In this document: in pieces, positions 21,668-47,264 of the stretch
How the letters are laid out: every line of letters begins with the position of its first letter
How positions within the stretch are numbered: position 1 is the stretch's first letter
Notes under the pieces: generated by a model
What the model was told of the DNA's origin: nothing
Seen by the model: the letters and a program-made list of their open reading frames with translations, nothing else
The model's database searches: none
From: Ornithinimicrobium sp. F0845
GTDB taxonomy: Bacteria; Actinomycetota; Actinomycetes; Actinomycetales; Dermatophilaceae
NCBI RefSeq assembly: GCF_023015765.1
Contig: NZ_JALKAL010000001.1
Location: 543,478 to 607,477 of the forward strand
Reading direction: 5' to 3'
Length of the DNA stretch: 64,000 nucleotides
Program-made: the position numbers and the translations under genes

Positions 21668-21758
21668 CCAGTTCTTGGGGAAGTTCTGTACGCCCCGCGC
21701 GCATTCTTGTCGTGGTTCTGTACGGCGCCGACGCATGTCGTAGTCGTTTCGGGCGTGC
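21668..21758 (+). repeat. Repeat cluster A (about three units), after the universal stress gene
   Basis: Three imperfect units of about 30 bp start two bases after the stop codon. They read, on the coding strand, CAGTTCTTGGGGAAGTTCTG, then GCATTCTTGTCGTGGTTCTG, then GCATGTCGTAGTCGTTTCGG, joined by G/C-rich linkers such as TACGCCCCGCGC. It is the most diverged cluster of the family. No open frame or strong hairpin explains it. Confidence 0.75.
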
Positions 21759-21808
21759 CAAGTCCCTCACTCTGCGCGACGCGTTGCGCTGACGTCTCGT
21801 GGTGGGGC

Positions 21809-21814
21809 TAGATT
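21809..21814 (+). promoter_or_regulatory. Probable -10 element of the glutamine amidotransferase gene
   Basis: TAGATT lies six bases before ATG 21821 with no ribosome site between, which predicts a leaderless transcript. This is the same geometry as upstream of several other genes here. Confidence 0.5.
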
Positions 21815-21820
21815 GCCGCC

Positions 21821-22552
21821 ATGAAGCCCACTGTGCTTGTGATCCAGCACGAGGACAAGTGTCCTCCAGGCTGGTTCGCCGACTGGCTCGCCGCAGCCGG
21901 GTTGGACCTGGACGTGCTCGAGGCGCACCGGGGACGGGCAATCCCCGCAGCCCTGACGGACCATGCCGGCCTGCTGGTGCTTGGCGGCGAGATGGGGGCG
22001 AACGACGACGCGACGACGCGGTGGCTGGCGCCGACCCGGGCCCTGATCGCCACGGTCGCGGCCGGGGGCGATCCGTTCCTGGGGATCTGTCTCGGGCACC
22101 AGCTGGCGACCGTCGCGCTGGGTGGCACCGTGGCGCGCAACCCGCACGGTCACGGCACCGGCCTGACCCCTTACGGTCCCACGTCCGAGGCGGCGGACGA
22201 CCCCCTGTTCGCGGCGTTGACGCCGGGAGTGCCGGCCGTGCAGTGGAACAACGACATCGCGATCGAACTGCCCCCACAGGCGACCGTGCTGGCTCGATCA
22301 CCCGACGGGACCGTGCAGGCCGCCCGGTTCGGGACCCGCGCATGGGGTGTGCAGTTCCACCCGGAAGCCTCTCCGGCGATCTTCCGAAGCTGGACCACGG
22401 ACAAGCCCTCAGCCCGTGAGGCCCGCGCCGACGGCATCGATGTGTTCGCCGCCGCGGACGCTGTCGAGGCCCACGCGGCCGGGCTGCGCCGTGCCTGGGA
22501 GCCCCTGGCGAGGCGGTGGGGCCGCATCGTCCGCGACGCCTGGAACGGTTAG
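21821..22552 (+). CDS. Class I glutamine amidotransferase-like protein
   Basis: This 243-residue protein has the catalytic triad region of class I amidotransferases: nucleophile cysteine in FLGICLGHQLA and the histidine-glutamate pair in WGVQFHPEAS. LLVLGGEMGANDD forms the oxyanion strand. It is a stand-alone domain resembling the GMP-synthase-like branch; such proteins hydrolyse gamma-glutamyl bonds, but the partner or substrate is not evident. The start has no Shine-Dalgarno site and TAGATT precedes it. Repeat clusters A and B flank the gene on both sides. Confidence 0.88.
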   Translation: MKPTVLVIQHEDKCPPGWFADWLAAAGLDLDVLEAHRGRAIPAALTDHAGLLVLGGEMGANDDATTRWLAPTRALIATVAAGGDPFLGICLGHQLATVALGGTVARNPHGHGTGLTPYGPTSEAADDPLFAALTPGVPAVQWNNDIAIELPPQATVLARSPDGTVQAARFGTRAWGVQFHPEASPAIFRSWTTDKPSAREARADGIDVFAAADAVEAHAAGLRRAWEPLARRWGRIVRDAWNG

Positions 22553-22576
22553 GCCAGGGCGGCGGCCTGGGGCGGC

Positions 22577-22695
22577 GTACAGAACGCCGACAAGAGTGCG
22601 TGGGGCCTACATAACCACTACAAAAATGCGTGGGGGGCCTACAAAACCACTACAAAAATGCGTGGGGGGCCTACAAAACCACTACAAGAATTGGG
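22577..22695 (-). repeat. Repeat cluster B (3.8 units), downstream of the oligopeptide ATPase gene
   Basis: Units begin at 22577, 22607, 22639 and 22671 (30, 32, 32 and a partial 25 bp). The two central units are almost identical: CTACAAAACCACTACAAAAA then TGCGTGGGGGGC on the plus strand. The partial unit ends immediately at the stop codon of the leftward oppF-type gene at 22696. On that gene's coding strand the array is T-rich (TTCTTGTAGTGGTTTTGTAG). This is the best-conserved cluster and defines the family. Confidence 0.9.
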
Positions 22696-23916
22696 TCACT
22701 CGGCCTCGGTGACGGAGGCGGGGCCGAACAGGCCGTCGTTGCGGTCCGACGCCGTATCCGTGGGGTCGGTCAGCTCGATCGAGACCTCGTGCGGCTGCAG
22801 CTCGCCGCTGGCGATCTGCTCCGCCCAGTGGCAGGCCACCCGTTGGGTCGGGGGGACACCGTCGATCTGCACGACGCGCAGCTCTGGTCGCTCCGTGTCA
22901 CAGCGGGTCGCCTGCCGCCACGGGCACCGGGTGTGGAACCGGCAGCCCGAGGGCGGGTTGGCCGGGCTGGGCAGGTCACCGGCCAGCAGGATCTGCTCGC
23001 GGGTGTCCTCGACCTGTGGGTCCGGCACGGGCACCGCCGACATGAGGGCACGGGTGTAGGGGTGCAGGGGGCGCGAGTAGAGGTCGTCCGCGGCCGCCTC
23101 CTCGACGAGCGCCCCGAGGTACATCACCCCGACCCGGTCGCTGATGTGCCGGACGACCGCCAGGTCGTGGGCGATCACCAGGTAGGTGAGGTCGAACTCC
23201 TCCTGCAGGTCCTCGAGCAGATTGATGACCTGCGCCTGGACCGAGACGTCCAGGGCGCTGACCGGCTCGTCGGCCACGATCAGCGTGGGGTTGACCGAGA
23301 GGGCCCGGGCGATGCCGACCCGCTGGCGCTGCCCGCCGGAGAACTCGTGGGGGTACTTGTTGAGCGCCGCACGGGGGAGACCGACCGCCTGCAGCAGCTC
23401 GGCCAGGCGCTCGGTCGCGCCGCCGTCCTTGACCAGGTTGTGGGCGCGCATTCCCTCCAGCAGCAGCTGCTCCACGGTCTGTCGGGGGTCGAGGCTGCCC
23501 AGCGGGTCCTGGAAGACCATCTGCATGTGCTGGCGCTGCTTGCGAAGCGCCTCGCCCTTGAGGGTGGCGAGGTCGACACCGTCGAAGTCGACCTCACCCT
23601 CGGTGAGCTCCTCGAGCTGCAGCAGGGCGCGTCCGAAGGTCGACTTGCCGCAGCCGGACTCGCCCACCAGGCCGTAGGTCTCGCCCCGGCGGATCTGCAG
23701 GTCCATGCCGTCGACGGCATAGACGTAGCCGACGGTCTTGTCGAAGATCACGCCGCGCTTGATCGGGAAGTGCACCTTGACTCCGCGAGCGTCAACGAGG
23801 ACCTCGCGCTCGGCCGTGGCGGTGGCTGTCGCGGCAGTGGCGGTCACGCCGGTGGACTCAGAGCCCGCCGTCGCGTCGGGCTCGCCCGGTGTCTCGGGGG
23901 TGGTGTTCTCGCTCAT
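22696..23916 (-). CDS. Dipeptide/oligopeptide ABC transporter ATPase (OppF/DppF type)
   Basis: This 406-residue ATPase has Walker A GESGCGKS, signature [15 protein letters not shown], Walker [15 protein letters not shown] and the C-terminal oligopeptide/dipeptide extension with [15 protein letters not shown] cysteines, which bind an iron-sulfur cluster in this subfamily. It follows the second ATPase gene with a 1-base overlap and ends the operon. A Thr/Ala-rich N-terminal segment of about 35 residues precedes the ATPase domain. Its stop abuts repeat cluster B. Confidence 0.94.
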
Positions 23917-24971
23917 CAGCTTGCCTCCGTCTCGGCCGGCCCGTCGGGGCGGACCAGGACCGACCCGTCCGCGGGCAGCGGGTTGTGGCAGCGCAGCAGT
24001 CGTTGGCCGCCGACCTCGGTGTCCGGCACCAGCTCCGGGGTCTGCTCACGACAGACGGCGATCTCGCTGGAACACCGTGGGGCGAACGCGCAGCCGCCCT
24101 CCCAGGGGATGTTGTCAGCGACCGAGCCACGCACGGGGGTGAGTCGTCGCCCACGGGGGTCGTCCAGGCGGGGGATCGAGGCGAGCAGCCCGCCGGTGTA
24201 GGGGTGCCGCGGTGTCTCGAACAGCGGATGGCGAGCCGACCGCTCGACGATGCGCCCGGCATACAGCACGTTGACCTCGTCACAGAGGCCGGCGACGACC
24301 CCGAGGTCGTGGGTGATCATGATGAGGGCGGTGCCGGACTCCTCGACCAGCTCTCGCAGCAGCGCCAGGATCTGGGCCTGGATCGTGACGTCGAGCGCCG
24401 TCGTCGGCTCGTCAGCGATCAGCAGCCGCGGCTCGCAGGCCAGGGCCATCGCGATCAGCGCCCGCTGGCGCATGCCGCCGGACAGCTGGTGGGGATAGTC
24501 GGTGAGCCGACGGGTGGGGTCGGGGATCCCGACCTTGTCGAGCAGCTCGGTGGCGCGGGCCTTGGCGGCCGCACCCTTCATGCCCTTGTGCCGCTGGAGC
24601 ACCTCCGTGACCTGGAGGCCGAGGGGGACGACCGGGTTCAGCGAGCTCAGCGGGTCCTGGAAGATCATCGCCAGCTCGGCGCCCCGGCGGTCCCGCATCT
24701 GCGCATCGGAGATGGTGAGCAGGTCCTCCCCGGCGAACCGGACCGAGCCCGTGACGGTGTTGCCACGGTGGGGGAGCAGCCGCATGATCGCCAGCGAGGT
24801 CACCGACTTGCCGCAGCCGGACTCGCCGACCAGACCGACGGTCTGACCGGGTGCCACGCCGAAGGAGACGCCGTCGACGGCGGTGAACTGCTTCTTGCCC
24901 TTCCCGCCGAACGTGACCCGGAGGTCGTCCACCTCCAGAAGCGGTGCAGTGCTGGATGTCGTCACCGTCAT
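23916..24971 (-). CDS. Dipeptide/oligopeptide ABC transporter ATPase (OppD/DppD type)
   Basis: This 351-residue ATPase has Walker A GESGCGKS, signature [15 protein letters not shown], Walker [15 protein letters not shown] and the C-terminal cysteine-containing segment ([16 protein letters not shown]). It works as a heterodimer with the ATPase encoded next. The ATG at 24971 overlaps the permease stop; a GTG immediately upstream at 24974 is also possible, since GGAGG lies right before it. The gene order (permeases, then D, then F) is the usual one for this importer. Confidence 0.94.
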
Positions 24972-25966
24972 CACCTCCGTGACTTGGGGTCGAGGGCCTC
25001 GCGCAACGACTCACCCATCAGGGTGAAGCCGAGGGCAACGACGATGATGCACAGGGCCGGGTAGACGGCGATGTGCGGGTAGGTGTTGAAGAACACCTGC
25101 GCCTTGCCCAGCATCTGGCCCCACTCCGGGATGGCGTCGTTGGGGTTGCCCAGGCCCAGGAAGGACAGGGCCGCGGCGTCGATGATGGAGACCGCCAGGA
25201 CCAGGGTCCCCTGCACGATGACCGGGCCGATGGAGTTGGGCAGCATGTGCCGGAAGACGATGGCGGGGCGACGCACGCCCAGGGCCCGGGCGGCCAGCAC
25301 GTGGTCGCTGTGCCGCTGGGCCATCATCGACCCGCGCAGCAGGCGGGCGAAGATCGGGACCTGGATGATCGCGATGGCCAGGATCACCGTCCACTGGCTC
25401 GGCGAGGCGAACAGTGCCGCGATGGAGAAGGCCATCAGCAGGCTGGGGATGGACAGCATCACGTCGACCACGCGCATGACCGCCGTGTCGGCGGCGCCAC
25501 CGATGCCGCCGGCGATGGTGCCCAGGATCATGCCGCCGAGCAGACCGCCCAGGGTGGCCAGCACACCGACGATCAGGGTCTGGCGGGAACCGGCGATCAG
25601 CCGCGAGAGCAGGTCACGCCCCGCGTTGTCGCCACCCAGGGGGAACCCCGGTTGGGGCTCGGGGATCGGGGTCGCTGGTGTCACCTGGTCGATCAGGAGT
25701 CGGGCGCTGGGGTCGTGCGGAGTGATCCACGGCGCGATGATCGCGATGATCACGAACACGGTGGTGATGCCCAGCCCCACGAGGAAGACCGGGTCCCGGC
25801 GCAGCCGGCGCCAGGCGCTGCGCCACAGGCTGACGCCCTCCTCCTCGGACAGGGCTCCGGCCTCGGCGAGGGAGTCGATGCGCGCCTTCTTGCGTGCCCC
25901 GAGGCCGTGCCTGGTGGAAGTCCTCTGGCCCGCACGCTCGGTGTCGGTGAGGTTGGGTTCGCTCAT
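24971..25966 (-). CDS. Dipeptide/oligopeptide ABC transporter permease (DppC/OppC type)
   Basis: This 331-residue permease has an N-terminal cytoplasmic extension of about 50 residues, the OppC_N helix (VFLVGLGITTVFVIIAIIAPWITPHDP) and the binding-protein-dependent transport core. The core includes the EAA-type loop around LAARALGVRRPAIVFRHMLPN. It begins 10 bases after the DppB-type permease gene and overlaps the first ATPase gene. The extension is longer than in enteric DppC. Confidence 0.93.
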   Translation of the reverse strand: MSEPNLTDTERAGQRTSTRHGLGARKKARIDSLAEAGALSEEEGVSLWRSAWRRLRRDPVFLVGLGITTVFVIIAIIAPWITPHDPSARLLIDQVTPATPIPEPQPGFPLGGDNAGRDLLSRLIAGSRQTLIVGVLATLGGLLGGMILGTIAGGIGGAADTAVMRVVDVMLSIPSLLMAFSIAALFASPSQWTVILAIAIIQVPIFARLLRGSMMAQRHSDHVLAARALGVRRPAIVFRHMLPNSIGPVIVQGTLVLAVSIIDAAALSFLGLGNPNDAIPEWGQMLGKAQVFFNTYPHIAVYPALCIIVVALGFTLMGESLREALDPKSRR

Positions 25967-25976
25967 GGCTGGCTCC

Positions 25977-26987
25977 TCACGTGGTCCGGACGCGCGGGTC
26001 GATCACCGCGTAGGCGATGTCCACGAGGAGGTTGACGATGATGTAGATCAGGGCGGCCATCATGATGAGCACCTGCAGCACCGGGTAGTCACGCAGCTCG
26101 AAGCCGATCGCCAGGGCCTGCCCGATGCCCTGGAAGACGAAGACCTTCTCGGTGAGCACGGCGCCGGCGAGCAGCGCACCGATCTGCAGGCCGACGATGG
26201 TCACGACCGGGATGAGGGCGTTGCGCATGACGTGTCGCACCCGGATGGTCCTGGAGTGCAGCCCCTTGGCGCGGGCGGTGCGCACGTAGTCCTCGTCCAT
26301 CACGTCGATCACCGCGGCACGGGTGATCCGGAAGATGATGGCGAAGGGGATGGAGGCCAGGGCGATCGTGGGCAGGATCAGGTGTTTGAAGGCGTCCCAG
26401 GCAGCGTCCCACTCACGCGTGATGAGGCCGTCCAGGACGTACATGTTGGTGATGTGGGTGGCGTTGATGCCTACGGTCTGCCGGCCGGAGGGCGGCAGCC
26501 AGCCCAGTTTCACCGCGAAGATGTACTTCAGGACGTAGGCCAGGAAGAAGACGGGGACCGCGACGCCGACCAGGGAGAAGATCACGCTGCCGGTGTCGAG
26601 GGGCCCCCCGCGGCGCCGCGCCGCGATGTAGCCCAGCGGTATCGCCAGCAGGAGCGCGAGCGCGATGGCGAAGATGCTGAGCTCCAGGGTCGCGGGGAAA
26701 CGCTGGATGAAGACGTCGAGCGCGGGCTCGCCGCGATAGACGCCGTTGGACACGCCGAAGTCGCCCTGGATCGCGCGCTGCAGGAACCGCCAGTACTGCA
26801 CGAAGATCGGGTCGTCGAGGCCGAGCTGGGCCCGGAGCTGGGCCGCGGTCTCCGGCGTGCCGCGCTCACCGAGCAGCGCGCTCACCACGCCTCCGGGCAG
26901 CGAGCGGAGCCACGCGAACAGGAGCACGCTGAGCACGAAGAGTGCCAGCACCGCCTGCAGCACGCGGCGGATGATGAACTTCAGCAC
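25977..26987 (-). CDS. Dipeptide/oligopeptide ABC transporter permease (DppB/OppB type)
   Basis: This 336-residue inner-membrane permease starts FIIRRVLQAVLALFVLSVLLF, the typical OppB first helix. The transport core has the EAA loop RTARAKGLHSRTIRVRHVMRN near residue 245, and it ends in the helix IYIIVNLLVDIAYAVIDPRVR. It is preceded by AGGAGG at 26992-26997 on its strand. It follows the binding-protein gene by 118 bases. Confidence 0.93.
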   Translation of the reverse strand: MLKFIIRRVLQAVLALFVLSVLLFAWLRSLPGGVVSALLGERGTPETAAQLRAQLGLDDPIFVQYWRFLQRAIQGDFGVSNGVYRGEPALDVFIQRFPATLELSIFAIALALLLAIPLGYIAARRRGGPLDTGSVIFSLVGVAVPVFFLAYVLKYIFAVKLGWLPPSGRQTVGINATHITNMYVLDGLITREWDAAWDAFKHLILPTIALASIPFAIIFRITRAAVIDVMDEDYVRTARAKGLHSRTIRVRHVMRNALIPVVTIVGLQIGALLAGAVLTEKVFVFQGIGQALAIGFELRDYPVLQVLIMMAALIYIIVNLLVDIAYAVIDPRVRTT

Positions 26988-27105
26988 CTAGACCTCCTGG
27001 GGGCTCGGCTGTCCGGACATGATGACGGGCTGGGCCAGTGTGCAGCCCAGCCCGTCATCTGTGCTGTCCCGCGTCAGGATAGACGTGGGATCGGGCGGTG
27101 TCGCC

Positions 27106-28833
27106 TTACTCGGTGATGGTGACCGTCGAGAAGTCCTCAGCGGTCAGCGGGCTCGCGACCATGCCCTGCACGTTCGCCGCGACGACGAGGGCCGGCGGGC
27201 TGTGCGAGAGCGGCAGCCCGGGCAGCCACTCGGGGCTCATGATGTTGGCGTTGAGCTCCTCGTAGAGCGCGGTGCGGGCCGCCTCGTCCGGCTCGGCGTC
27301 GGCCGCGGCGATCTGCTCCTGCAGGTCGGCGTGGAAGTCGTAGGCCGAGGTGCCGAACTGGTTGTCGTCACCACAGAAGAAGGCGCACAGGAAGTTGTCC
27401 GCCGAGTTCAGGTCACCGGTCCAGCCCAGGAAGAAGGCGGGGGCCCGGCTGGCCTGCGTGTCGTCGATGTAGCCACCGGCCCACGGCTTGGTGACGGTCT
27501 CGACGGTGATGCCGGCCGCCTCCCAGTCAGCCTTGACCGCGTCGTAGATGCGCTGCGGGTCCGGCATGTAGGGACGGGTGACCTCGCTCGGGTACCACAG
27601 CTCGATGGTCAGGTCGGACTTGCCGGCCTGCTCGAGCAGGTCCTTGGCCTTCTCCACGTCGTACTCGTACGCCGCGATGTCGGCGTTCCAGCCGCTGACG
27701 GTGTCCGGCATGAACTGCGTCGCCACGCTGGCGCCGGCCGGCAGCTGAGAGGTGACCAGCTGGTCGCGGTTGAGCGCGTGGTAGAGCGCCTGGCGGACCA
27801 GCGGGTCCTCCAGCTGCGGGTCGGCGACGGGGTTCAGCGCCAGGTAGAGGACGTTGAACGGGTCGCGGATGAGCACCTGGTTGCCGGCGTCCTCAAGGGC
27901 CTGCCAGTCGATCGGGTTCGGCAGGTCGTAGCCGTGGATGGTCCCCGCCTCGAGCTCCTGACGGCGGGCGTTCTCGTCGGCGATGATCTTGAAGACGAGC
28001 GTGCCCACGCCGGCCTGCTCGCCCCAGAAGTCGTCGTTGCGGACGAGGGTGACGGTGCCGGCGGCGTTGTCGTAGCCCTCGAACTTGAACGGACCGGTGC
28101 CGGTCGGGTGCTCCCGGCCATACTCCGGGAAGACGAAGGCCTCACCCTCGAGGGCGATGTCGTTGGCGTTGAACTCCTCCATCGCGGTCGGGGACTGGAT
28201 GGCGTAGGAGGACTGCGACAGGACCGACGGGAACTTGCCAGTCACCCGCGTGACGGTCACCTGGGCGGTGTAGTCCTCGGTGGCCTCGCAGCCGCCGTAG
28301 AGCGAGTCCTCGCCCCACCCGAAGTCGTTGCCGTAGTAGTAGGCGCCGGAGGGGCTCATGCCCGCCTCGTTCTGGTCGGCCCAGCGCTCGAAGTTGTCAC
28401 AGACCGCCTGGGCGTTCAGCTCGGTGCCGTCGTGGAACGTCACACCCTCCTGGATGGTGAAGTCCCAGACCAGGCCGTCCTCGCTGGTCCACTCGGTGGC
28501 CAGCTCGGGGACGAAGTCGGTGCCACCCGGCTCGACGCCGATCAGGTTCTGGTAGATCTGACGGGTGACGCGGAAGGTCTCGCCGTCGCTGGCGTAGAAC
28601 GGGTCGAACACCGTCGGCGCACCCGCGGCACCGAAGATGAACGTGGCGTCGGACGCGGCCTGGGCCCCGTCGTCGCCACCGTCGTCGGTGGAGTCGGCTC
28701 CGTCGCCGGCGTCCTCGCCTGCAGTGTCTTCGGCCCCGGTGTCGGGCTCGTCCCGGTCGGACTCGGCGCACGACGTCAGGACGAGCGCCAGAGCGGCGGT
28801 CCCGGCGATCGCCGCCATCTTGCGGATAGTCAT
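27106..28833 (-). CDS. Dipeptide/oligopeptide ABC transporter, substrate-binding lipoprotein
   Basis: This 575-residue family-5 extracellular solute-binding protein has a lipoprotein signal (lipobox LTSC, cysteine near residue 21), an acidic Asp/Gly/Ala linker of about 40 residues and the large peptide-binding fold. Landmarks are LATEWTSEDGLVWDFTIQEGVTFHDG near the start and AYEYDVEKAKDLLEQAG later. ATG 28833 is chosen because it begins the signal peptide and follows GAGGAGG. It heads the five-gene import operon running leftward to 22696. Confidence 0.93.
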   Translation of the reverse strand: MTIRKMAAIAGTAALALVLTSCAESDRDEPDTGAEDTAGEDAGDGADSTDDGGDDGAQAASDATFIFGAAGAPTVFDPFYASDGETFRVTRQIYQNLIGVEPGGTDFVPELATEWTSEDGLVWDFTIQEGVTFHDGTELNAQAVCDNFERWADQNEAGMSPSGAYYYGNDFGWGEDSLYGGCEATEDYTAQVTVTRVTGKFPSVLSQSSYAIQSPTAMEEFNANDIALEGEAFVFPEYGREHPTGTGPFKFEGYDNAAGTVTLVRNDDFWGEQAGVGTLVFKIIADENARRQELEAGTIHGYDLPNPIDWQALEDAGNQVLIRDPFNVLYLALNPVADPQLEDPLVRQALYHALNRDQLVTSQLPAGASVATQFMPDTVSGWNADIAAYEYDVEKAKDLLEQAGKSDLTIELWYPSEVTRPYMPDPQRIYDAVKADWEAAGITVETVTKPWAGGYIDDTQASRAPAFFLGWTGDLNSADNFLCAFFCGDDNQFGTSAYDFHADLQEQIAAADAEPDEAARTALYEELNANIMSPEWLPGLPLSHSPPALVVAANVQGMVASPLTAEDFSTVTITE

Positions 28834-29063
28834 TCTGCCTCCTCGTGAGGCCGCCGGAGGAACCCGGGGCCGGATCGCAATGGCCCAAAGGTAGGCGCAT
28901 GTGCGGCCCAGCGGAAGCAGGGGGCACGGATCGATGCCGAACCTTGACCTAATCGATGCCGGGCCTGCCCTGGGCAACGGTGATATGTCTGTGAGAGCGG
29001 TATATCCGCTGCGCCGGCCCGGGGCCGCGCCCGGGGAGGTGGGGGAGCCGTAGCGTGTCGGTC

Positions 29064-29486: not shown

Positions 29487-29517
29487 GCACGGCCCGCGGG
29501 ATGAGAAAATCGTCCCC

Positions 29518-31417
<1,900 letters not shown>

Positions 31418-32901: not shown

Positions 32902-32970
32902 ACAATTTTCGTAGTGGTTTTGTCGGTGCTCCACGCATTTTCGTAGTGGTTTTGTCGCCGCTCCGCGCAC
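32902..32970 (+). repeat. Repeat cluster C (about two units), after the flavin reductase gene
   Basis: Immediately after the TAA are two copies of TTTTCGTAGTGGTTTTGTCG, separated by GTGCTCCACGCA. The second is followed by CCGCTCCGCGCA. The T-rich strand is the coding strand of the upstream gene. Unit period is about 32 bp. Confidence 0.85.
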
Positions 32971-33054: not shown

Positions 33055-33171
33055 CGAAGGTCACAGCGCGGCCGTCGTTCGCATGGATAACCGGTGGTCG
33101 CGGGAGTGCACCGAACCATGCACCGCGCGGTCGACGACGCCCGCGCGGCCGCGGCCGGAAGGAGCACGCCG

Positions 33172-34691
33172 ATGGGCTCGAGCGACATCACCGTCAACGG
33201 CACCGCGCGCCCGTGCGACGCGTCCCCCCACACCAGTCTGCTGGACTGGCTGCGCGACCAGGGGTGGACCGGCGCCAAGGAGGGGTGCGCCGAGGGGGAG
33301 TGCGGGGCCTGCGCGGTGCTGGTCGCCCGGCCGGACGGCCCGGAGCGGACCCGCTGGGTCGCGGTCAACGCCTGCCTGCCGCCGGCGCTGGCCTTCGACG
33401 GTCAGGAGGTCGTCACCTCCGAAGGGCTGGGCACCCCGCCCGCCCCGGGGCGGGAGGGTGATCTCCACCCGGTGCAGCGCGAGATGGCCGACCGGGGCGG
33501 GTCGCAGTGCGGCTACTGCACGCCCGGGTTCGTGTGCGCGATGGCCGCCGAGTTCTACCGCCCCGAGCGGACGCCGCAAAACAGTGCCGACGATCACGAG
33601 TGCGGTCCCAACGGTTTCGACCTGCACGCCCTGAGCGGGAACCTGTGCCGGTGCACGGGCTACCGTCCGATCCGGGACGCGGCGTACGCGCTGGGGGAGC
33701 CGGACCCCGGCGACCCTCTCGCCCGGCGGAGCGACACGCCAGCCCCGGCGGCACCACCCACGCGGGTGAGCCTGGCGGAGGCGGAGTTCGTCCGCCCCGC
33801 GGACCTGACCGAGCTCCTGTCGCTCCTCGCGGAGAGTCCGGACGCCGTCCTGCTCGCCGGGGCGACTGACGCCGGCGTCGAGCGCAACCTGCGCCACCAC
33901 CGACCGCCACTCGTGCTGGCCATCGACCGCGTCGACGAACTGCGCGACCTGCGCGTCGAGGCCGAGTCCGTGGAGATCGGGGCAGCCCTCACGCTCAGCG
34001 AGATCGAGCGGGGTCTTGCCGGGCGCGTGCCGCTCCTTGAGGAGCTGTTTCCGCAGTTCGCCTCCCGGCTCATCCGCAACACCGCGACCCTCGGCGGCAA
34101 TCTCGGGACCGGCTCGCCGATCGGCGACGCCGCCCCGGTGCTGCTCGCCATGGACGCCAGCCTCCTGCTTGCCTCCGCAGAGGGGGAGCGGGAGGTGCCG
34201 CTGGCGGACTACTTCACCGGTTACCGCCAGAGCGTGCGTCAGCCCGGCGAGCTGATCCGCTCCGTGCGCGTCCCCCTGCCGGCGGCACCCGACGCCGCGT
34301 TCTACAAGATCGCCAAGCGGCGCTTCGACGACATCTCCTCGGTCGCGGTCGCGATCGCGATGCGACTCGAGGACGGTGCGGTCGCCGCCGTGCGGATCGG
34401 CCTGGGCGGGGTCGCCGCCACCCCGATCCGGGCGACGGCGACGGAGGAGGCCCTCGTCGGACAGCCGTGGACCGCGGCCACCGTCGCCCGTGCCGCGGAG
34501 GTGCTGGCTGCCGAGGGGACGCCGCTCGACGACCACCGAGCCAGCGCCCGCTACCGCTCCGCCATGCTCGGGCAGGCGCTGCTGCGCTTCCACGCCGAGC
34601 AGGGTGAGGGTGCCGGGGCGGGACCAGCAAAACCCCTGCAAAAAGGCGGGTTCGACCGACAAAACCACTATGAAAATTGGGGGGAGGGGCG

Positions 34692-34695
<4 letters not shown>
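33172..34695 (+). CDS. xdhA: Xanthine dehydrogenase small subunit (2Fe-2S and FAD domains)
   Basis: The 507-residue subunit has two [2Fe-2S] domains (cysteines in GCAEGECGACAV and NACLPP; then QCGYCTPG and LCRCTGYRPI). A FAD-binding domain (LAGATDAGVERNLR, RLIRNTATLGGNLGTGSPIGDAAP) and the CO-dehydrogenase flavoprotein C-terminal domain follow. It passes electrons from purine oxidation to NAD. ATG 33172 follows GGAAGGAG. The last 20 or so codons are made from repeat cluster D (reading KPLQKGGFDRQNHYEN), so the native C-terminus has been replaced or extended by repeat DNA. It overlaps the large-subunit gene by 4 bases. Confidence 0.93.
34625..34682 (+). repeat. Repeat cluster D (about two units) inside the xdhA 3' end
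   Basis: AGCAAAACCCCTGCAAAAAG and CGACAAAACCACTATGAAAA form two units of the same 31-bp family, ending in TTGGGGGGAGGGG. Here the A-rich strand is the coding strand, opposite to the other clusters, and the repeat is translated as the end of the small subunit. The terminal G-rich part serves as the ribosome site for the next gene. Confidence 0.85.
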
Positions 34696-37925: not shown

Positions 37926-37935
37926 GGAGGCTCCG

Positions 37936-38154: not shown

Positions 38155-38219
38155 TCCGGGCCTGCCGCGCGCTGGGGACGGCGGCCGGCAGGGATGGCGC
38201 GGGGCGCGAGGGCACGTCG

Positions 38220-38261: not shown

Positions 38262-38415
38262 CGAGCCGATGCCGGGAGATAACTATTCGGCATCGATACG
38301 GGTCTCCTGGGCAACGCCACGCTGCGCGGGAGGTATCTAGGTCAGGGGCGCACGGCATACTGCCACAGACGCCTGAGCCGTCGCTGACTCAGATCCGAGC
38401 AAAGAGGGAAGCCGC

Positions 38416-40140: not shown

Positions 40141-40275
40141 CCGTCGTGATGCCTGCCACACAACCAGGGGCTGGCTACCTGGTCCACGGGACCCGACGGC
40201 ATACTAGGAAGTGGTCTGTCTCGTGCTTCGGCCCGCGTCGGGCCGCCACACCACCATCAAGAGCAGGAGCCGTTC

Positions 40276-40602
40276 ATGACCTACGTGATCGCACAGCCGT
40301 GCGTTGACCTCAAGGACAAGGCATGTATCGAGGAGTGCCCGGTCGACTGCATCTACGAGGGTGAACGTTCGCTCTACATCCACCCCGACGAGTGCGTCGA
40401 CTGCGGTGCTTGCGAGCCGGTGTGCCCGGTCGAGGCCATCTACTACGAGGACGACGTCCCGGAGGAGTGGGCTGACTACTACAAGGCCAACGTCGAGTTC
40501 TTCGACGACCTGGGCAGCCCGGGCGGGGCCGCCAAGCTCGGCCTGATCCCCAAGGACCACCCGATCATCGCCGTGCTGCCCCCGCAGGAGCACGACGAGT
40601 AA
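40276..40602 (+). CDS. fdxA: Seven-iron ferredoxin
   Basis: This 108-residue ferredoxin of the [3Fe-4S][4Fe-4S] type is known from actinobacteria. The N-terminal half has cysteines at [17 protein letters not shown] and the second set is [20 protein letters not shown]; a C-terminal extension follows ([16 protein letters not shown]). It serves as a low-potential electron carrier. ATG 40276 follows GAGCAGGAG. In many relatives dapC follows this gene; here citrate synthase does, after a strong hairpin. Confidence 0.94.
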
Positions 40603-40656
40603 GAACCCCCCGGATTCGGGCAGGTGCTGCAGTGGCTCTGCTCGGCCAACGACAAG

Positions 40657-40683
40657 CGGCGCGCCCGGCCCTAGGGCGCGCCG
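40657..40683 (+). terminator. Strong GC hairpin between fdxA and gltA
   Basis: CGGCGCGCCC and GGGCGCGCCG form a perfect 10-bp stem around the seven-base loop GGCCCTA. It lies 55 bases after fdxA and 20 bases before the gltA start. No T run follows, so it is either a U-less actinobacterial terminator or a transcript-stabilising or attenuating structure. Confidence 0.65.
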
Positions 40684-40702
40684 ACCCCGAGCAGGAGGAC
40701 CC

Positions 40703-41989
<1,287 letters not shown>

Positions 41990-42020
41990 GCGCAGTCCCT
42001 GCCGCTGAGTCCCTGCCGCA

Positions 42021-42052
42021 GGCCCCCGTTCCGGCTCGCCGGGGCGGGGGTC
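42021..42052 (+). terminator. Hairpin downstream of gltA
   Basis: GGCCCCCGTTCCGG pairs with CCGGGGCGGGGGTC over 14 positions, three of them G-U, around a CTCG loop. It starts about 31 bases after the gltA stop and lacks a T tract. It is a likely terminator between gltA and the convergent gene at 42121. Confidence 0.7.
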
Positions 42053-42120
42053 TGTGCGTGCGGCGGCGCACTGCGTGGTCGGCCTGTGGGAGCGCATCAC
42101 CGCGCCCGGTCGGTCTCGTC

Positions 42121-42993
42121 TCAGCCGGAGGCGACGGTGACGGTCACCGTGGTGCCGTCGGCGGGGGCGCCGGTGGTCTGCCAGGTCAGCGGGTCGTCGT
42201 GGCGGTTCCACACGCGGTCCGCCACCTCGACCCGGACGATGTGCTCGGCCTCCGCGTGCGCGACCGCCCAGCTGGCGATGGCCCAGGCGGTGGCGGCGTC
42301 GGAGGCCTGGAACGTCACGGTGTCGCCGTCCACCTGGCCGTCGCCGGAGAAGGTCCGCCGCGCCTTGTCCAGCACGTCCTGCGCCGAGCCCGCGGACTCG
42401 GCGGCGTCCAGGCGGCACGCGACGCCGGCGGGGCTCTGCCCGACGAGGGCCGAGGCCATCACCCGGGCCTCGCCCTCGTGATCTGCGTAGGCGTCGGGGA
42501 AGGCGCTGCGCTGCACCTCCTGGGCGATCGTGGTGACCTCCCAGTCCTCCCAGCCCGGGATCGCGACCAGGGCGTCGAAGAAGGCGTTCGAGGCGAAGAC
42601 CGGATCGTTGACCTCCTCCGGGCTGCCCCAGCCCTGGCTGGGGCGTTGCTGGAAGAGCCCGAGGGAGTCGCGGTCGCCGTAGGTCAGGTTGCGCAGCTTG
42701 GACTCCTGGATCGCCGTGGCCAGTGCGATCGTGGAGGCCTTGGGCGGCAGGTCGCGCCCGACCGCGACCATGCTGATCGTCGCGGCGTTGGCCGCCTGCT
42801 CCGGTGTCAGCCGCTCGGACGCGCTGCCGGCGGTGAACTCGCAGGTCGGGGTCCGGAACTCCTCCACGACCCACCGAGCCCCGACCACGCCGACGAGCAC
42901 GGCCACCGACGTGGCCGCCGCCAGGGTCATCCAGCCGCGCCGCCGTGGCTGACGCGCCTCGGCGGCCGGGTCATCCTGGCCGGCCGGGGTCAT
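42121..42993 (-). CDS. Membrane-anchored protein with lysozyme-like segment
   Basis: This 290-residue protein has a proline/arginine-rich cytoplasmic start, one transmembrane helix (LAAATSVAVLVGVVGARWVV) and an exported part. The first exported segment contains STIALATAIQESKLRNLTYGDRDSLGLFQQRPSQGWG. Its catalytic-like glutamate, with SLGLFQQRPS, recalls the transglycosylase or lysozyme fold. The C-terminal part (about 190-290) is a separate beta-rich region. It may cleave or sense peptidoglycan, but the family is not certain. It is convergent with gltA and divergent from dapE. Confidence 0.72.
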   Translation of the reverse strand: MTPAGQDDPAAEARQPRRRGWMTLAAATSVAVLVGVVGARWVVEEFRTPTCEFTAGSASERLTPEQAANAATISMVAVGRDLPPKASTIALATAIQESKLRNLTYGDRDSLGLFQQRPSQGWGSPEEVNDPVFASNAFFDALVAIPGWEDWEVTTIAQEVQRSAFPDAYADHEGEARVMASALVGQSPAGVACRLDAAESAGSAQDVLDKARRTFSGDGQVDGDTVTFQASDAATAWAIASWAVAHAEAEHIVRVEVADRVWNRHDDPLTWQTTGAPADGTTVTVTVASG

Positions 42994-43097
42994 GGTGGGG
43001 AGTCTACCTACGGCCGACCCCCAGAACCGTGTCGCGACGGCCGTGGTGCGACCGGCGACGCCGCTCCTGCCGACCCCGCCCGGATAGGGTCAGAAGT

Positions 43098-44174
43098 ATG
43101 TCGTCGGTGCCCCGGTTGGACCTGGGTCAGGATGTGGTTGCCCTGACCGAGAGCCTGTGCAACATCCCCTCCGTCAGCCTGGCGGAGGGGCCGCTCGCGG
43201 ACGCCCTCGAGGCCGCGCTGCGCGCCCTGCCACACCTGAGCGTGACGCGCGACGGCGACGCCGTCGTGGCGCGCACCGAGCTGGGGCGAGCCGAGCGGGT
43301 GGTGCTCGCCGGGCACCTCGACACGGTGCCGCTCACCGACCCTCCCAACCTCCCGGTGCGGCGCGAGGGCGGCTACCTGGTGGGCCGCGGCACGACCGAC
43401 ATGAAGGGCGGCGTGGCCGTGCAGCTGTGCCTCGCGGCCACGCTGCCGCAGCCGAACCGGGACATCACGTTCGTCTTCTACGACGCCGAGGAGATCAGCG
43501 ACGAGCACAACGGACTGGCGCGGCTGGCCCGACAGCACCCCGAGCTGCTCGCCGCGGACTTCGCGGTGCTGCTGGAGCCGACCGACGATGCCGTGGAGGG
43601 CGGCTGCAACGGCAACGTCACGGCGCTCGTGCACACCCGTGGGAGGGCCGCGCACTCGGCACGACCCTGGATGGGCCACAACGCGATCCATGACCTCGCC
43701 GATGTCCTGGCGCGCATCGAGCGCGGTCAGCTGCCCGACGCGGAGGTGGACGGGCTGGTCTACCGGCAGTCGCTGAACGCGGTCGGGATCAGTGGGGGCA
43801 TCGCGCACAACGTGATCCCCGACCACGCCGTCGTCACCGTCAACCTGCGGTTCGCGCCGCGGTGGGACGCCGACCGGGCGGTGTCCTACCTGGTCGACGA
43901 CGTGTTCGCCGGGCTGGAGGTGGAGATCATCGACCGCTCCGCCGGGGCCCGTCCGGGTCTGCAGCGACCGGCCGCCGCGGACTTCGTCCGTGCGCTGGGA
44001 CTCCCGGTCCGGGCCAAGCAGGGGTGGACGGACGTCGCGCGCTTCTCGGCGCTGGGGGTCCCAGCGGTCAACTTCGGCCCAGGGGAGAGCCAGTTCGCCC
44101 ACGCGGACGACGAACGCTGCCAGATCGCACAGATCGTCGCGGCGCAGGAGGCCCTGACCGGGTGGCTCGCATGA
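43098..44174 (+). CDS. dapE: Succinyl-diaminopimelate desuccinylase
   Basis: This 358-residue M20-family metalloenzyme frees LL-diaminopimelate in lysine and peptidoglycan synthesis. Metal ligands are recognisable in AGHLDTVP, GRGTTDMKGGVA and FYDAEEISDEHNGL. A dimerisation insert is present (HTRGRAAHSARPWMGHNAIHD), and the last ligand histidine is in SQFAHADDE. TAGGGT lies seven bases before ATG 43098, with no ribosome site, so the mRNA is probably leaderless. The LOG-family gene follows after 52 bases. Confidence 0.93.
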   Translation: MSSVPRLDLGQDVVALTESLCNIPSVSLAEGPLADALEAALRALPHLSVTRDGDAVVARTELGRAERVVLAGHLDTVPLTDPPNLPVRREGGYLVGRGTTDMKGGVAVQLCLAATLPQPNRDITFVFYDAEEISDEHNGLARLARQHPELLAADFAVLLEPTDDAVEGGCNGNVTALVHTRGRAAHSARPWMGHNAIHDLADVLARIERGQLPDAEVDGLVYRQSLNAVGISGGIAHNVIPDHAVVTVNLRFAPRWDADRAVSYLVDDVFAGLEVEIIDRSAGARPGLQRPAAADFVRALGLPVRAKQGWTDVARFSALGVPAVNFGPGESQFAHADDERCQIAQIVAAQEALTGWLA

Positions 44175-44226
44175 GCGGGTCGCGGCGGGTTCGCCCCGCG
44201 AGCGCCCCACGGTTTAGGTTCGGGGG

Positions 44227-44955
44227 GTGAGCCAGCCGATGGAATACCGCAAGGGCCCCGTGACCCTGCGGGGACGCAAGGTGCCGACCAGCACGACGGA
44301 CCAGCGACTGCTGGACTCCAGCGGGCCGGCCGACTGGGTGCACACCGACCCGTGGCGGGTGCTGCGCATCCAGTCGGAGTTCGTCGAGGGCTTCGGGACG
44401 CTCTCAGAGCTGGGTCCGGCGGTCAGCGTGTTCGGGTCCGCCCGGCTGCTGCCCGGGCACCCGGTCTACGAACTGTCCGTGGCGGTCGGCGCGGCCCTGG
44501 TGGAGGCCGGGTACGCCGTGATCACCGGCGGCGGGCCCGGCACCATGGAGGGTGCGAACCTCGGGGCCGTGCGGGAGGGCGGCACGTCCGTGGGTCTGGG
44601 GATCGAGCTCCCCTTCGAGACCGGGCTGAACGCCCACGTCAACCTGGGCATCAACTTCCGCTACTTCTTCGCCCGCAAGACGATGTTCGTCAAGTACGCC
44701 CAGGGGTTCATCGTGCTTCCGGGCGGTTACGGCACCCTGGACGAGCTCTTCGAGGCGGTGACCCTCGTGCAGACCGGCAAGGTCACCAACTTCCCGATCG
44801 TGCTGATGGGCACCGACTTCTGGACGCCGTTGCTGCAGTGGCTGCGCTCCACCCTCGTGGCCGAGGGGACCATCGCCGAGGCGGACCTCGACCTGCTGCA
44901 CCTGACCGACGACCCCGCGGAGGCGGTGCGGATCGTCCGCGAGGCGCGCACGTGA
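44227..44955 (+). CDS. LOG family protein (TIGR00730, putative lysine decarboxylase fold)
   Basis: This 242-residue Rossmann-like protein has the motifs VSVFGSARLLPGHP, VITGGGPGTMEGANLGA and PGGYGTLDELFE, the last with the GGxGTxxE signature of cytokinin-nucleoside-5'-monophosphate phosphoribohydrolases. TAGGTT stands six bases before the GTG, a likely leaderless start. The stop overlaps the next start by 4 bases. The dapE, LOG, DivIVA order recurs in actinobacteria, but the cellular role is unproven. Confidence 0.88.
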   Translation: MSQPMEYRKGPVTLRGRKVPTSTTDQRLLDSSGPADWVHTDPWRVLRIQSEFVEGFGTLSELGPAVSVFGSARLLPGHPVYELSVAVGAALVEAGYAVITGGGPGTMEGANLGAVREGGTSVGLGIELPFETGLNAHVNLGINFRYFFARKTMFVKYAQGFIVLPGGYGTLDELFEAVTLVQTGKVTNFPIVLMGTDFWTPLLQWLRSTLVAEGTIAEADLDLLHLTDDPAEAVRIVREART

Positions 44956-45344
44956 TCCTCATCCTGGTCATCGCAGGCGTCCTGGCGCTCGGCCTGGCGG
45001 CGGCCGCCATCGTGCTGCGCAGCGGCGTGCCCGGTGTTGCCGACCCCGTGACGACGGAGGCCTTCGAGCCACTCCCGCGGGGCATCGTGCGCCCGGCGCA
45101 GGTGACCGAGCTGCGCTTCGACCAGGCCATCAGGGGCTACCGGATGGCCCAGGTCGATGAGGTGCTGGACCAGCTCACCGAGGAGCTGCGCGACCGCGAC
45201 GCCGAGGTGGCCCGGCTGCGGGCCGAGCTCGCCGCGACGCCGGTGGACTTCACCGGCCGCGAGGGACAGAGCGACGACCCGCACGACGTGCACGAGGCGG
45301 GGGAGGCCCCCCAGGCAGGGGAGAGCGATCGTGGGGACCTTTGA
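44952..45344 (+). CDS. DivIVA-domain membrane protein
   Basis: The 130-residue protein has an N-terminal transmembrane helix (ILVIAGVLALGLAAAAIVL) and then the short DivIVA-like domain (VTELRFDQAIRGYRMAQVDEVLDQLTEEL). A coiled-coil stretch and an acidic tail follow. The RGYR..QVD motif is the mark of the family. Small forms like this accompany polar growth or septation proteins, but no role is proven. The GTG overlaps the previous stop (GTGA), and its own end overlaps the next gene by 14 bases. Confidence 0.87.
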   Translation: MILILVIAGVLALGLAAAAIVLRSGVPGVADPVTTEAFEPLPRGIVRPAQVTELRFDQAIRGYRMAQVDEVLDQLTEELRDRDAEVARLRAELAATPVDFTGREGQSDDPHDVHEAGEAPQAGESDRGDL

Positions 45345-45765
45345 GATCGTGCGCACCTGGGATGCCGACCCGGACCGCACCTTTGACGTCCTGGGTGACC
45401 TCCCGGCATACGGGCAGTTCCAACCGCTGACCCGGATCCGGGCGACCCCGGGACCGATCGCCCCGGGCTGGTCGTTCGTGGCCTACACCGGGCTCGGGCC
45501 GGCCTCGGTCGTCGACCGCATGGTGGTGACCGCGTGGGCGCCCGGGGAGCACTTCGAGATCGTCAAGATCGGTCCGGTGCTGGACGGCTGGGCAAGGGTG
45601 CACCTGACGCCCGAGGGCGAGGGCACGCGGATCGTCTGGCGCGAGGAGATCGTCCCCCGGCCGGGGTGGCTCGGGCGCCGGGTCGGGCCGGTCAGTGACC
45701 CGCTGATGCGGTGGTTCACCGGGCGGTCGCTGGACCGGATGGGCGAACGGGTCAGCGCCCGGTGA
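45331..45765 (+). CDS. SRPBCC family protein
   Basis: The 144-residue protein has the START/Bet v1-like fold: an N-terminal strand (FEIVRTWDADPDRTFDVLGDLPAYGQF), a central sheet (GPIAPGWSFVAYT) and a long C-terminal helix (RWFTGRSLDRMGERV). It probably binds a hydrophobic ligand in the cavity. GTG 45331 follows CAGGGGAGAG and begins before the DivIVA-domain gene ends. The stop overlaps the next gene by 4 bases, so five genes from 43098 to 46961 form a tightly packed unit. Confidence 0.83.
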   Translation: MGTFEIVRTWDADPDRTFDVLGDLPAYGQFQPLTRIRATPGPIAPGWSFVAYTGLGPASVVDRMVVTAWAPGEHFEIVKIGPVLDGWARVHLTPEGEGTRIVWREEIVPRPGWLGRRVGPVSDPLMRWFTGRSLDRMGERVSAR

Positions 45766-46961
45766 CCCGCTCGACCGGCCGGTTTCTGCTGATCCTGCTG
45801 GGGCTGTACACGCTGTTCCGCCTGTTCACCACCGGCGTGCTGCTGTGGATCGTGGCCCAGCACCAGGACCCGGTGATCTTCAGCGGCGAGGTGCCGCGCT
45901 ACTTCGACCTGGCCACGCTCTGGGACGGTGCGTGGTACGAGCGGATCGCGACCACCGGCTACCCCTCCGAGCTGCCGGTCGACGACCAGGGTCAGGTCCG
46001 GCAGAACGAGTGGGCGTTCTATCCGATCTTTCCGTTCCTGGCCAGGGGCCTGATGGCCGTGACCGGCCTGCCGTTCGCCGTGGCGGCACCGGTCGTCGCC
46101 ACGGCCCTGGGGTATGCCGCAGCCGTGGTGATGGGCCTGATGCTCCGCGAGCGCGTGGGGTCGGCCGCAGCCCTGGCCGGGGTGGCGCTGTTCGCCGCCT
46201 TCCCAGCCTCCCCGACGCTCCAGGTCGCCTACACGGAGTCCCTGGCCGCACTGTTGCTGTGCGTGGTGCTGTGGCTGCTCATGCGGCAGAAGTGGTTGGC
46301 CGCTGGTGCGGTGGCCCTGCTGACCGGCCTGGCGCGACCGATCGCGCTCCCACTGGGGCTGGTGGCGCTCGTCGCCGTCATCCTGCGCTGGCGTCGCCGG
46401 GAGGCCGAGCCGATCAGCGGCGGGGAGTATGCCGGGATGGCGGCGGCCCTCGCGGGGTGCGGGATCTCCGGTCTGATCTGGCCGGCGATCGTCTGGGCGC
46501 AGACGGGTGTGCCGAACGGGTACACCGTCACGATGTCGGCCTGGCGCGGTGGCGAGCAGGTGACCCCGTTCACGCCGACCCTGGAGATGGTGCAGTGGCT
46601 CTTCGGTGACCTGCGCGGCCTGCTCCTGCTGGCCGGCTTCTTCGTGCTGCTGGCCGTGATGATGCTGGGGCCGTGGGCGCGCGGGCTCGGCCCGGTGCTG
46701 CAGACCTGGACCCTGGGGTACCCCTTCTATCTCGCGGCGGCCCTAGACCCGTGGACGAGCATCTACCGCTACCTCATCCTGCTCTTCCCCGCGTTCGTCG
46801 TGATGGTCGGCGGCGGCTGGCCACCCGACGACCCGCGGTCCCGACCGACCTGGCTGCTGGTGCTGCGGACCGTCGTGATCGCCCTGCTGTTCCTGGGCTG
46901 GCAGGTGTGGTGGTCCTGGGAGCTGTTCCGCTTCGAACCACCCCGCGACAACCCGCCCTAA
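45762..46961 (+). CDS. Polytopic mannosyltransferase-like membrane protein (PIG-V type)
   Basis: This 399-residue protein has about ten hydrophobic helices. An extracytoplasmic loop after the first helix carries DLATLWDGAWYERIATTGYP, the WDGxWY motif of PIG-V-like polyprenyl-phosphate-dependent mannosyltransferases. FYPIFPFLAR and the later YTESLAALL and RPIALPLGL segments agree. The likely role is sugar transfer onto a cell-envelope acceptor. The GTG overlaps the SRPBCC stop, and repeat cluster E1 begins directly after its TAA. Confidence 0.82.
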   Translation: MTRSTGRFLLILLGLYTLFRLFTTGVLLWIVAQHQDPVIFSGEVPRYFDLATLWDGAWYERIATTGYPSELPVDDQGQVRQNEWAFYPIFPFLARGLMAVTGLPFAVAAPVVATALGYAAAVVMGLMLRERVGSAAALAGVALFAAFPASPTLQVAYTESLAALLLCVVLWLLMRQKWLAAGAVALLTGLARPIALPLGLVALVAVILRWRRREAEPISGGEYAGMAAALAGCGISGLIWPAIVWAQTGVPNGYTVTMSAWRGGEQVTPFTPTLEMVQWLFGDLRGLLLLAGFFVLLAVMMLGPWARGLGPVLQTWTLGYPFYLAAALDPWTSIYRYLILLFPAFVVMVGGGWPPDDPRSRPTWLLVLRTVVIALLFLGWQVWWSWELFRFEPPRDNPP

Positions 46962-47035
46962 ACCCAAAAAATATAGTGGATTTGTACGCCCTCCACGCAT
47001 TTTTGGGGAGGTTTTGCACGGTCTCCGACCTGCAC
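46962..47035 (+). repeat. Repeat cluster E1 (about two units), after the mannosyltransferase gene
   Basis: Directly after TAA the coding strand reads CCCAAAAAATATAGTGGATT-TGTACGCCCTCCACGCA, then TTTTTGGGGAGGTTTTGCAC. A degraded third unit continues to about 47047. The T-rich strand is the coding strand. The GGGGAGG variant of the core replaces GTAGTGG in one unit. Confidence 0.8.
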
Positions 47036-47165
47036 GCTGTTTTGGGGACGAACCAGGACGTCGTGGGGCCAGTGTCGGACCCGGTGCTCCTGTGGTACCC
47101 CCTGCGACTGGGGGCCACCCGCGGCCGTAGGCACTCGTCATACTGAGGACGAAACCACAGCCGGG
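47036..47165. other. Spacer between repeat clusters E1 and E2
   Basis: About 130 bases between two convergent genes, each followed by its own repeat cluster. I see no gene, tRNA or convincing terminator here. Confidence 0.4.
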
Positions 47166-47264
47166 CTTGTACAAAGCCACTACAAGAATGGCGTGGGAGC
47201 GTACAAAACCTCCCCAAAAAGGCGTGTGGGCCCTGCAAAACCACTACAAAAATGTGTGGGGACG
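47166..47264 (-). repeat. Repeat cluster E2 (about three units), after the enoyl-CoA hydratase gene
   Basis: Plus-strand units are TACAAAGCCACTACAAGAAT, TACAAAACCTCCCCAAAAAG and TGCAAAACCACTACAAAAAT, each followed by a GCGTG- or GTGTG-type linker. The array ends 3 bases before the stop of the leftward enoyl-CoA hydratase gene, so on that gene's coding strand it is T-rich and immediately downstream. It mirrors cluster E1 on the other side. Confidence 0.88.

What the first reader, a model, noticed from the sequence alone, without database searches (positions are those of the whole stretch)
21668..47264. A dispersed family of 30-32-bp tandem repeats built on GTAGTGGTTTTGTA
Six clusters (21668-21758, 22577-22695, 32902-32970, 34625-34682, 46962-47035, 47166-47264) share the unit TACAAAACCACTACAAAAAT plus a GCGTGGGG-type linker, with 2 to 4 units each. 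Variants swap GTAGTGG for GGGGAGG. They are AT-rich islands in a GC-rich genome. They are contiguous repeats with semi-conserved linkers, not CRISPR. I know of no named element like this. The conserved core with drifting linkers suggests a bound or structured signal rather than junk slippage.
Basis: seen in the sequence. Interest (0 to 1): 0.82.

Follow-up and report, generated by a model that had tools for sequence, protein, structure and literature searches.

The report
Paired 32-bp repeats at gene borders
One actinobacterium and a few close relatives carry dozens of small, precisely built repeat pairs set tightly against the ends of genes; they look like a mobile repeat family that may be tolerated in only one direction inside genes and operons, and the known repeat families I could test do not fit.

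Summary
The six clusters belong to a family of about 70 arrays in this genome (111 units at E<=0.05) and about 80 in a complete congener. The period is 32 bp, not 30-31. Units are found in 8 of 31 genomes of the genus, own included (6 with 12 or more), and in no other of 53 genera searched in the family (8 of 186 genomes). Arrays are polar. The outer edge, typically C(n)AATTTT, lies within -11..+6 nt of a sense stop codon in 65 of 88 arrays with such a neighbour; the inner edge does so in 12 of 77. Sites compared with relatives show insertions of about 80 bp and more. Facing arrays are strongly over-represented. Two array-bracketed genes are inverted between species and bracket contents vary. 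Arrays inside genes (12 of 13) or in the tightest same-strand gaps (7 of 7) are antisense, a post hoc test. No Y1 transposase, Rfam, phage, plasmid or viral match was found. Best reading: a non-autonomous mobile repeat family with an inferred one-way effect on transcription and an unknown mobiliser. New variant of a known kind.

The parts
21666..21758 (+). degenerate array (units at about 21672, 21704, 21735; only 21704 is scored by the profile) directly after the stop codon of a universal stress protein gene (20784-21665)
21821..22552 (+). glutamine amidotransferase gene between two facing arrays, on the strand opposite to that seen in the 23 other congener loci where it was detected
22569..22694 (-). 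array of 3 clear units and a marginal fourth (T1 at 22690, 22658, 22626, 22596), outer edge 3 nt from the stop of an ABC transporter gene (22696-23916, -)
32902..32970 (+). array of 2 units (T1 at 32906, 32938) after the TAA of a flavin reductase-like gene
   Evidence: arrays at the same place in G006 (2 units) and G010 (1 unit), none in G015
34612..34682 (-). array of 2 units (T1 at 34676, 34644) inside the 3' end of the xdhA frame (33118-34695), antisense to it, just before the xdhB start codon
   Evidence: also in G006, G010, G015
46962..47035 (+). array of 2 units (T1 at 46968, 47000) after the TAA of gene 45762-46961
47161..47264 (-). array of 3 units (T1 at 47252, 47220, 47188) facing the previous one, outer edge 10 nt from the stop of an enoyl-CoA hydratase-like gene (47265-48068, -)
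   Evidence: no array at this place in G013 and G025

Best explanation
A dispersed, non-autonomous mobile repeat family. The element is a polar array of usually two direct 32-bp units, TTTTNGTAGNGGTTTYG plus a 15-nt semi-conserved linker. Its outer edge, typically C(n)AATTTT, ends up flush against a stop codon or, less often, close to a start codon. Shown by comparison: dispersal, polarity, flush outer edge, sites without the array in relatives, different array subtypes at shared sites, excess of facing pairs, two bracketed genes inverted, bracket contents that vary. Inferred: an unidentified trans-acting enzyme or binding protein recognises the units and spreads or exchanges them. Inferred with weaker support: read in its own direction, an array stops or blocks transcription. 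It therefore survives after stop codons but is purged in that direction from genes and tight operons, and facing pairs insulate the DNA between them.
For: Genome-wide family, reversed-pattern control 0; 111 units; genus counts. Outer edge within -11..+6 nt of a sense stop in 65 of 88 arrays, inner edge of a stop in 12 of 77; outer edge 10-20 nt from a start in 10 of 36, inner 1 of 48. Sites: 12-nt gap in G006 against 94 nt with array in G000; 10-nt gap in G013, read by eye, against 303 nt with two arrays in G000. Facing partner (score >=5) within 2.4 kb 50 of 125, divergent 2 of 119, same strand 4 of 125 and 3 of 119; complete G006, adjacent arrays within 3 kb: facing 8, divergent 1, same strand 1. 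G000-G023 shared sites (n=16): core 20% and linker 33% different, aligned flanks 10-15%. Units of one array resemble each other more than units of other arrays in G000 (10.56 against 9.53 of 13, sd 0.13), G023, G006 and G015, not clearly in G010; TGGGGAGG has 12 units in G000 and is not among the 12 commonest listed elsewhere. GATase inverted; M20 peptidase gene inverted, L183/L187; gene content differs L153/L104; bracketed genes of L175 and L172 have no match listed at the syntenic place in array-free G013. Polarity: internal intragenic arrays 12 antisense, 1 sense; same-strand gaps with <=20 nt left 0 of 31 sense, 7 of 24 antisense, Fisher p=0.0017.
Against: No mobiliser was identified: 19 bracketed proteins were scanned, none is a transposase, but 5 have no Pfam match; of the recombinase families only PF01797, PF00665 and PF00589 were searched. 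No target-site duplication was seen by eye. Unpaired arrays show no decayed partner (n=69, Wilcoxon p=0.53), so the facing pair is not obligatory; part of the facing excess follows from the flush edge. Seven of ten compared brackets are colinear in at least one relative. In L183 the left array of the inverted bracket is one weak unit. Flanks are mostly coding and only aligned parts count, so faster array divergence may partly be the non-coding rate; cores diverge less than linkers, which could mean constraint on a bound site. The polarity test is post hoc: <=60 nt p=0.083, whole distribution p=0.054; sense arrays have fewer open frames (1.29 against 2.55 of 3), which explains part of the intragenic bias. 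Native outer-edge and linker-core folds are a little more stable than shuffled ones. No transcription data.
Confidence: 0.5

Rival explanations
1. Terminal repeats of an ordinary transposon or MITE: two or three transposase-binding repeats at each end, with host genes captured between facing ends.
For: Facing pairs down to about 115 bp (L161, L192), repeated sites at ends, varying bracket contents and inversions.
Against: No transposase recognised among 19 bracketed proteins scanned (5 have no Pfam match); no PF00665 match within 15 kb of a listed array in G000 or G006; no target duplication seen by eye; 75 of 125 arrays have no facing partner within 2.4 kb and unpaired ones show no decayed partner; inner flanks share no common interior.
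Confidence: 0.2
2. Binding sites of a nucleoid or regulatory protein, maintained by selection, phased every three helical turns.
For: Strict 32-bp period, core less divergent than linker at shared sites, coupled core positions 6 and 9.
Against: No match in 23 of 31 genomes of the genus, species-specific subtypes, insertions at otherwise short gaps.
Confidence: 0.12
3. RNA element or intrinsic terminator in the 3' UTR.
For: 88 of 156 arrays examined have a sense stop as outer neighbour; weak fold potential of linker plus core.
Against: No hairpin covariation and native folds equal swapped controls, fold z-scores -0.70 to 2.35 in six sequences, no terminator pattern in two regions scanned; 61 of 156 arrays lie next to a start of the opposite gene or antisense in a called gene.
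Confidence: 0.08
4. A REP/REPIN-type family driven by a RAYT transposase.
For: GTAG core, TAG supplied as stop codon, opposite-orientation pairs, gene-end location, intragenic copies, all described for REPs in PMC3733652 (passages seen).
Against: No covarying palindrome; Y1_Tnp PF01797 found in 0 of 31 genomes of the genus, with 5 of 14 control genomes positive.
Confidence: 0.05
5. Replication slippage or VNTR decay with no function or mobility.
For: Tandem layout.
Against: Same unit at about 70 unlinked sites, mostly two units, fixed polarity and edge.
Confidence: 0.02

Closest known systems
GTAG-tagged REP sequences / REPINs / BIMEs
   Same: High-copy short repeats near gene 3' ends, TAG of GTAG used as stop codon, opposite-orientation pairs favoured over tandem pairs, some copies inside genes (PMC3733652 and PMC8266576, passages seen).
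   Different: No covarying palindrome, each half is a direct dimer of 32-bp units, no Y1 transposase found in the genus.
Mycobacterial interspersed repetitive units (MIRU)
   Same: Actinobacterial tandem repeats set tightly between genes (recalled; one search gave a search listing only).
   Different: No sequence comparison was made; MIRU are longer units at operon junctions (recalled).
pdif / dif modules of Acinetobacter
   Same: Genes bracketed by short recombination sites that can shuffle (search listing and abstract starts only; inverse orientation recalled).
   Different: Those are Xer sites, mainly on plasmids; here the sites are 2 x 32 bp chromosomal arrays, mostly unpaired; Xer involvement was not tested.
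MITEs
   Same: Non-autonomous, mostly intergenic, inverted ends in the facing pairs.
   Different: No parent transposon found, no target duplication seen, no shared interior.

Membership tests
REP / RAYT system | GTAG (or similar) tetranucleotide tag | tested here: met
   the commonest core holds GTAG in G000, G006, G015 and G023, with other subtypes; in G010 the commonest is GATAGAGG
REP / RAYT system | conserved palindromic stem next to the tag | tested here: not met
   no pair exceeds independent expectation in a consistent stem and native fold equals swapped controls; a weak consensus-level complementarity CCAC/GTGG exists and folds slightly better than shuffles
REP / RAYT system | Y1 HuH transposase in the genome | tested here: not met
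   PF01797: 0 of 31 genomes of the genus, 2 of 58 relatives in all, 5 of 14 controls positive
CRISPR array | near-identical repeats separated by unrelated spacers, with cas genes | tested here: not met
   linkers are semi-conserved family sequence and G006 arrays have 1-3 listed units; cas genes were not searched for
MITE / transposon ends | terminal inverted repeats delimiting a mobile unit | tested here: inconclusive
   50 of 125 arrays have a facing partner within 2.4 kb; unpaired ones show no decayed partner
MITE / transposon ends | target-site duplication | tested here: inconclusive
   none seen at the few sites read by eye; the relatives are only about 80-90% identical
MITE / transposon ends | cognate transposase | tested here: inconclusive
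   none recognised in 19 bracketed proteins; only PF01797, PF00665 and PF00589 searched
Intrinsic terminator | GC hairpin followed by T run | tested here: not met
   0 found in the two window regions scanned, which hold four of the six clusters
Rho-dependent terminator | C-rich, G-poor transcript after the stop codon | tested here: inconclusive
   C/G ratio 0.94 over the arrays does not favour it, but this is a crude measure
pdif modules | XerC/XerD binding sites | not tested
   no comparison with dif was made

The most novel reading that the evidence does not exclude
A new kind of mobile boundary element: a two-unit, helically phased direct-repeat array that is spread to gene borders by an unknown enzyme, blocks transcription in one direction only, and in facing pairs insulates (and occasionally flips) the gene between them.
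Probability: 0.2. Interest if true: 0.8.

Novelty: new variant of a known kind. Interest (0 to 1): 0.55.

Why it matters
Small dispersed repeats shape bacterial gene ends, yet I know of no family with this build. It allows direct tests of whether a repeat can be spread to stop codons, whether it stops transcription in one direction, and which protein reads a 32-bp direct dimer. It also links repeats to single-gene inversions in otherwise colinear genomes.

Tried and rejected
Slippage/VNTR: rejected by genome-wide dispersal. CRISPR: linkers belong to the family. RNA structure: z-scores -0.70 to 2.35 in six sequences; the strongest coupling lies inside the core, positions 6 and 9; I first tested a wrong stem (core with downstream linker) and then the linker-core stem, both without covariation, although native 21-nt folds beat shuffles (-3.67 against -2.61) while equalling swapped controls (-3.61). 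RAYT: none in the genus. Rfam, plasmids, phages, viral contigs: nothing (one array queried in 64 and 65). Claim that bracketed genes are generally inverted: 2 of 10 brackets compared; 7 are colinear in at least one relative and 1 differs in content (one of the ten has no called gene inside). Claim that the facing pair is the unit: not supported for unpaired arrays. Cargo as accessory cassettes: most bracketed genes look like ordinary metabolism. 14 of the 50 stretches of the collection scan were other tandem repeats and were dropped.

Literature: searches on Ornithinimicrobium with repeat and intergenic (one unrelated paper), with genome and repetitive, dispersed repeats in actinobacteria (12 of 26 listed, none relevant by title), MITE with stop codon (none) and the core word itself (none) gave no description; nothing more backs 'not in print', and the library holds only open-licence papers.

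Limits: genes were called by my own codon-usage script. Orthologous duplicates were dropped by hand, by locus and strand, before the polarity counts. Loci of G006, G015, G010, G008 and G023 used were those fetched, mostly top-scoring, not full sets; the orientation count uses the 150 of 155 units listed for G006. Genus searches scored at most 150 candidates per genome (38), so high counts may be low.
Full report
OBSERVATION. The six clusters exist as described and exceed chance: 11 core matches in the window against 0.15 expected; TTTTTGTAGTGGTTTTGTA with up to 3 mismatches has 63 matches in the genome and the reversed control none. The period is 32 bp. A sequence-only profile built from 92 units finds 111 units at E<=0.05 in this genome.

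DISTRIBUTION. At E<=0.01 the profile matches 8 of 31 genomes of the genus, own included: G023 162, G006 117, G000 99, G015 96, G010 46, G008 12, G013 1, G024 1 (at most 150 candidates scored per genome). In the family, with stricter filters, only those 8 of 186 genomes match, 1 of 53 genera. A two-unit pattern scan of named genomes gave 50 stretches: 34 from one Actinomycetales MAG, 2 from Ornithinimicrobium cavernae, and 14 that are unrelated tandem repeats. The genus is therefore inferred, not shown, to be Ornithinimicrobium, and the MAG is probably G023. A one-locus tree of 28 of the 31 genomes (G023, G009 and G019 missing) places array-rich species in two places, G000+G006+G010 and G008+G015, so gain, transfer and loss cannot be told apart.

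ANATOMY. Unit: TTTT[C/T/G]GTAG[T/G/C]GGTTT[T/C]G plus a 15-nt linker that is itself semi-conserved (183 units). In G000 the second unit has a clear core in 91% and the third in 12% of 67 arrays. The outer edge typically reads C(1-7)AATTTT. Of 156 arrays examined, 26 lie inside called genes, 88 have a sense stop as outer neighbour, 36 the start of a gene pointing away, 6 none found. The outer edge is within -11..+6 nt of the sense stop in 65 of 88; in 13 of these the TAG of the unit's own core serves as the stop. Inner edges are within the same distance of a stop in 12 of 77. The outer edge is 10-20 nt from the start codon in 10 of 36, the inner edge in 1 of 48. Gaps between convergent genes are short in array-free species (many under 30 nt), which makes some closeness expected on both sides.

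INSERTION AND TURNOVER. At one convergent gene pair G006 has a 12-nt gap and G000 a 94-nt gap with an array. At the 46.97-47.25 kb site, read by eye, G013 has 10 nt and G025 adjacent stop codons, G015 one array, G010 one recognisable right-hand unit, G000 and G006 two facing arrays. Sites shared by G000 and G023 (n=16) have aligned flanks at about 85-90% identity while cores differ by 20% and linkers by 33%; some sites carry different subtypes in the two species (L154 and L092). The flanks are mostly coding, so part of this is the ordinary non-coding rate. Units of one array resemble each other more than units of other arrays (clear in G000, not clear in G010).

PAIRING AND REARRANGEMENT. A facing partner lies within 2.4 kb in 50 of 125 arrays, a divergent one in 2 of 119 (each pair counts twice and the loci were not a random set). 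In G006, adjacent arrays within 3 kb are facing 8, divergent 1, same strand 1. Part of this follows from the flush outer edge, since two arrays in one gap must then face. The GATase gene of the window lies between facing arrays on the strand opposite to the ABC gene; in 27 other loci it was detected in 23 (46-85% identity) and always on the same strand as the ABC gene, and no array was scored in any of the 27. No other inverted block is listed in the synteny tables of the window and the 107 kb before it, though a few blocks are out of order. A second gene (M20 peptidase), bracketed in G000 by one weak and three clear units, is inverted between G000 and G006, and the alignment boundary falls in the array; which state is older was not tested. 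A third bracket holds a sigma-factor-like gene and an unknown gene in G000 and about 130 bp in G023. Seven other brackets are colinear in at least one relative; for two of them, the MFS gene of L175 and the two unknown genes of L172, array-free G013 has no match listed at the syntenic place, and G015 lacks the MFS gene there.

POLARITY. After removing orthologous duplicates by hand, arrays well inside genes are 12 antisense and 1 sense; stop codons explain part (open frames 1.29 sense, 2.55 antisense of 3). Between co-oriented genes, residual gaps of <=20 nt occur in 0 of 31 sense and 7 of 24 antisense cases (p=0.0017), <=30 nt 1 of 31 and 7 of 24 (p=0.016), <=40 nt 1 of 31 and 9 of 24 (p=0.0015), <=60 nt 6 of 31 and 10 of 24 (p=0.083); whole distribution p=0.054. 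The cut-offs were chosen after seeing the data. This suggests, without proving, that an array is poorly tolerated when transcribed through in its own direction.

WHAT IT IS NOT. No covarying hairpin, no Y1 transposase in the genus, no PF00665 match near arrays in G000 or G006, one tyrosine recombinase 2 kb from an array in G006, which may be chance, no Rfam, viral, plasmid or phage match. REP sequences share many habits (PMC3733652, passages seen), so the family works like REPs in where it sits, but two defining REP features were tested and not met.

VERDICT. A real repeat family with an unusual build, found in one genus. Past mobility is supported by comparison, its agent is unknown, and a polar effect on transcription is a testable inference.

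Noticed in passing
window and L253-L258 (G000:C1:436000-607477): The octamer GTATGCCG, often AGTATGCCGT, occurs 75 times in 171.5 kb against 4.3 expected (order-3 Markov) and is similarly frequent in the stretches held of G006, G015, G013, G025 and G010, including array-poor or array-free species; 21 of 24 window sites are inside called genes. It resembles an uptake-sequence-like or Chi-like genome word.
   Followed up: partly
window 34612-34695: The array is read as the C-terminal tail of XdhA in frame and ends just before the xdhB start; the same arrangement is seen in G006, G010 and G015.
   Followed up: partly
L062, L073, L085, L088, L102: A second, different dispersed repeat of about 50-75 bp lies just inside several arrays of the MAG.
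   Followed up: no
L153:3224-4280: Sigma-70 region 4-like gene plus an unknown gene between facing arrays in G000, absent between the same arrays in L104.
   Followed up: partly
L254, about G000:C1:466130-466350: Gap between genes holding repeated CACGTGGAG words and a long imperfect palindrome, unrelated to the array (seen by eye).
   Followed up: no
core positions 6, 7 and 9 of the unit: Strong coupling of these positions (CAGG, TAGT, GGGA combinations), as if several alternative recognition subtypes exist.
   Followed up: no
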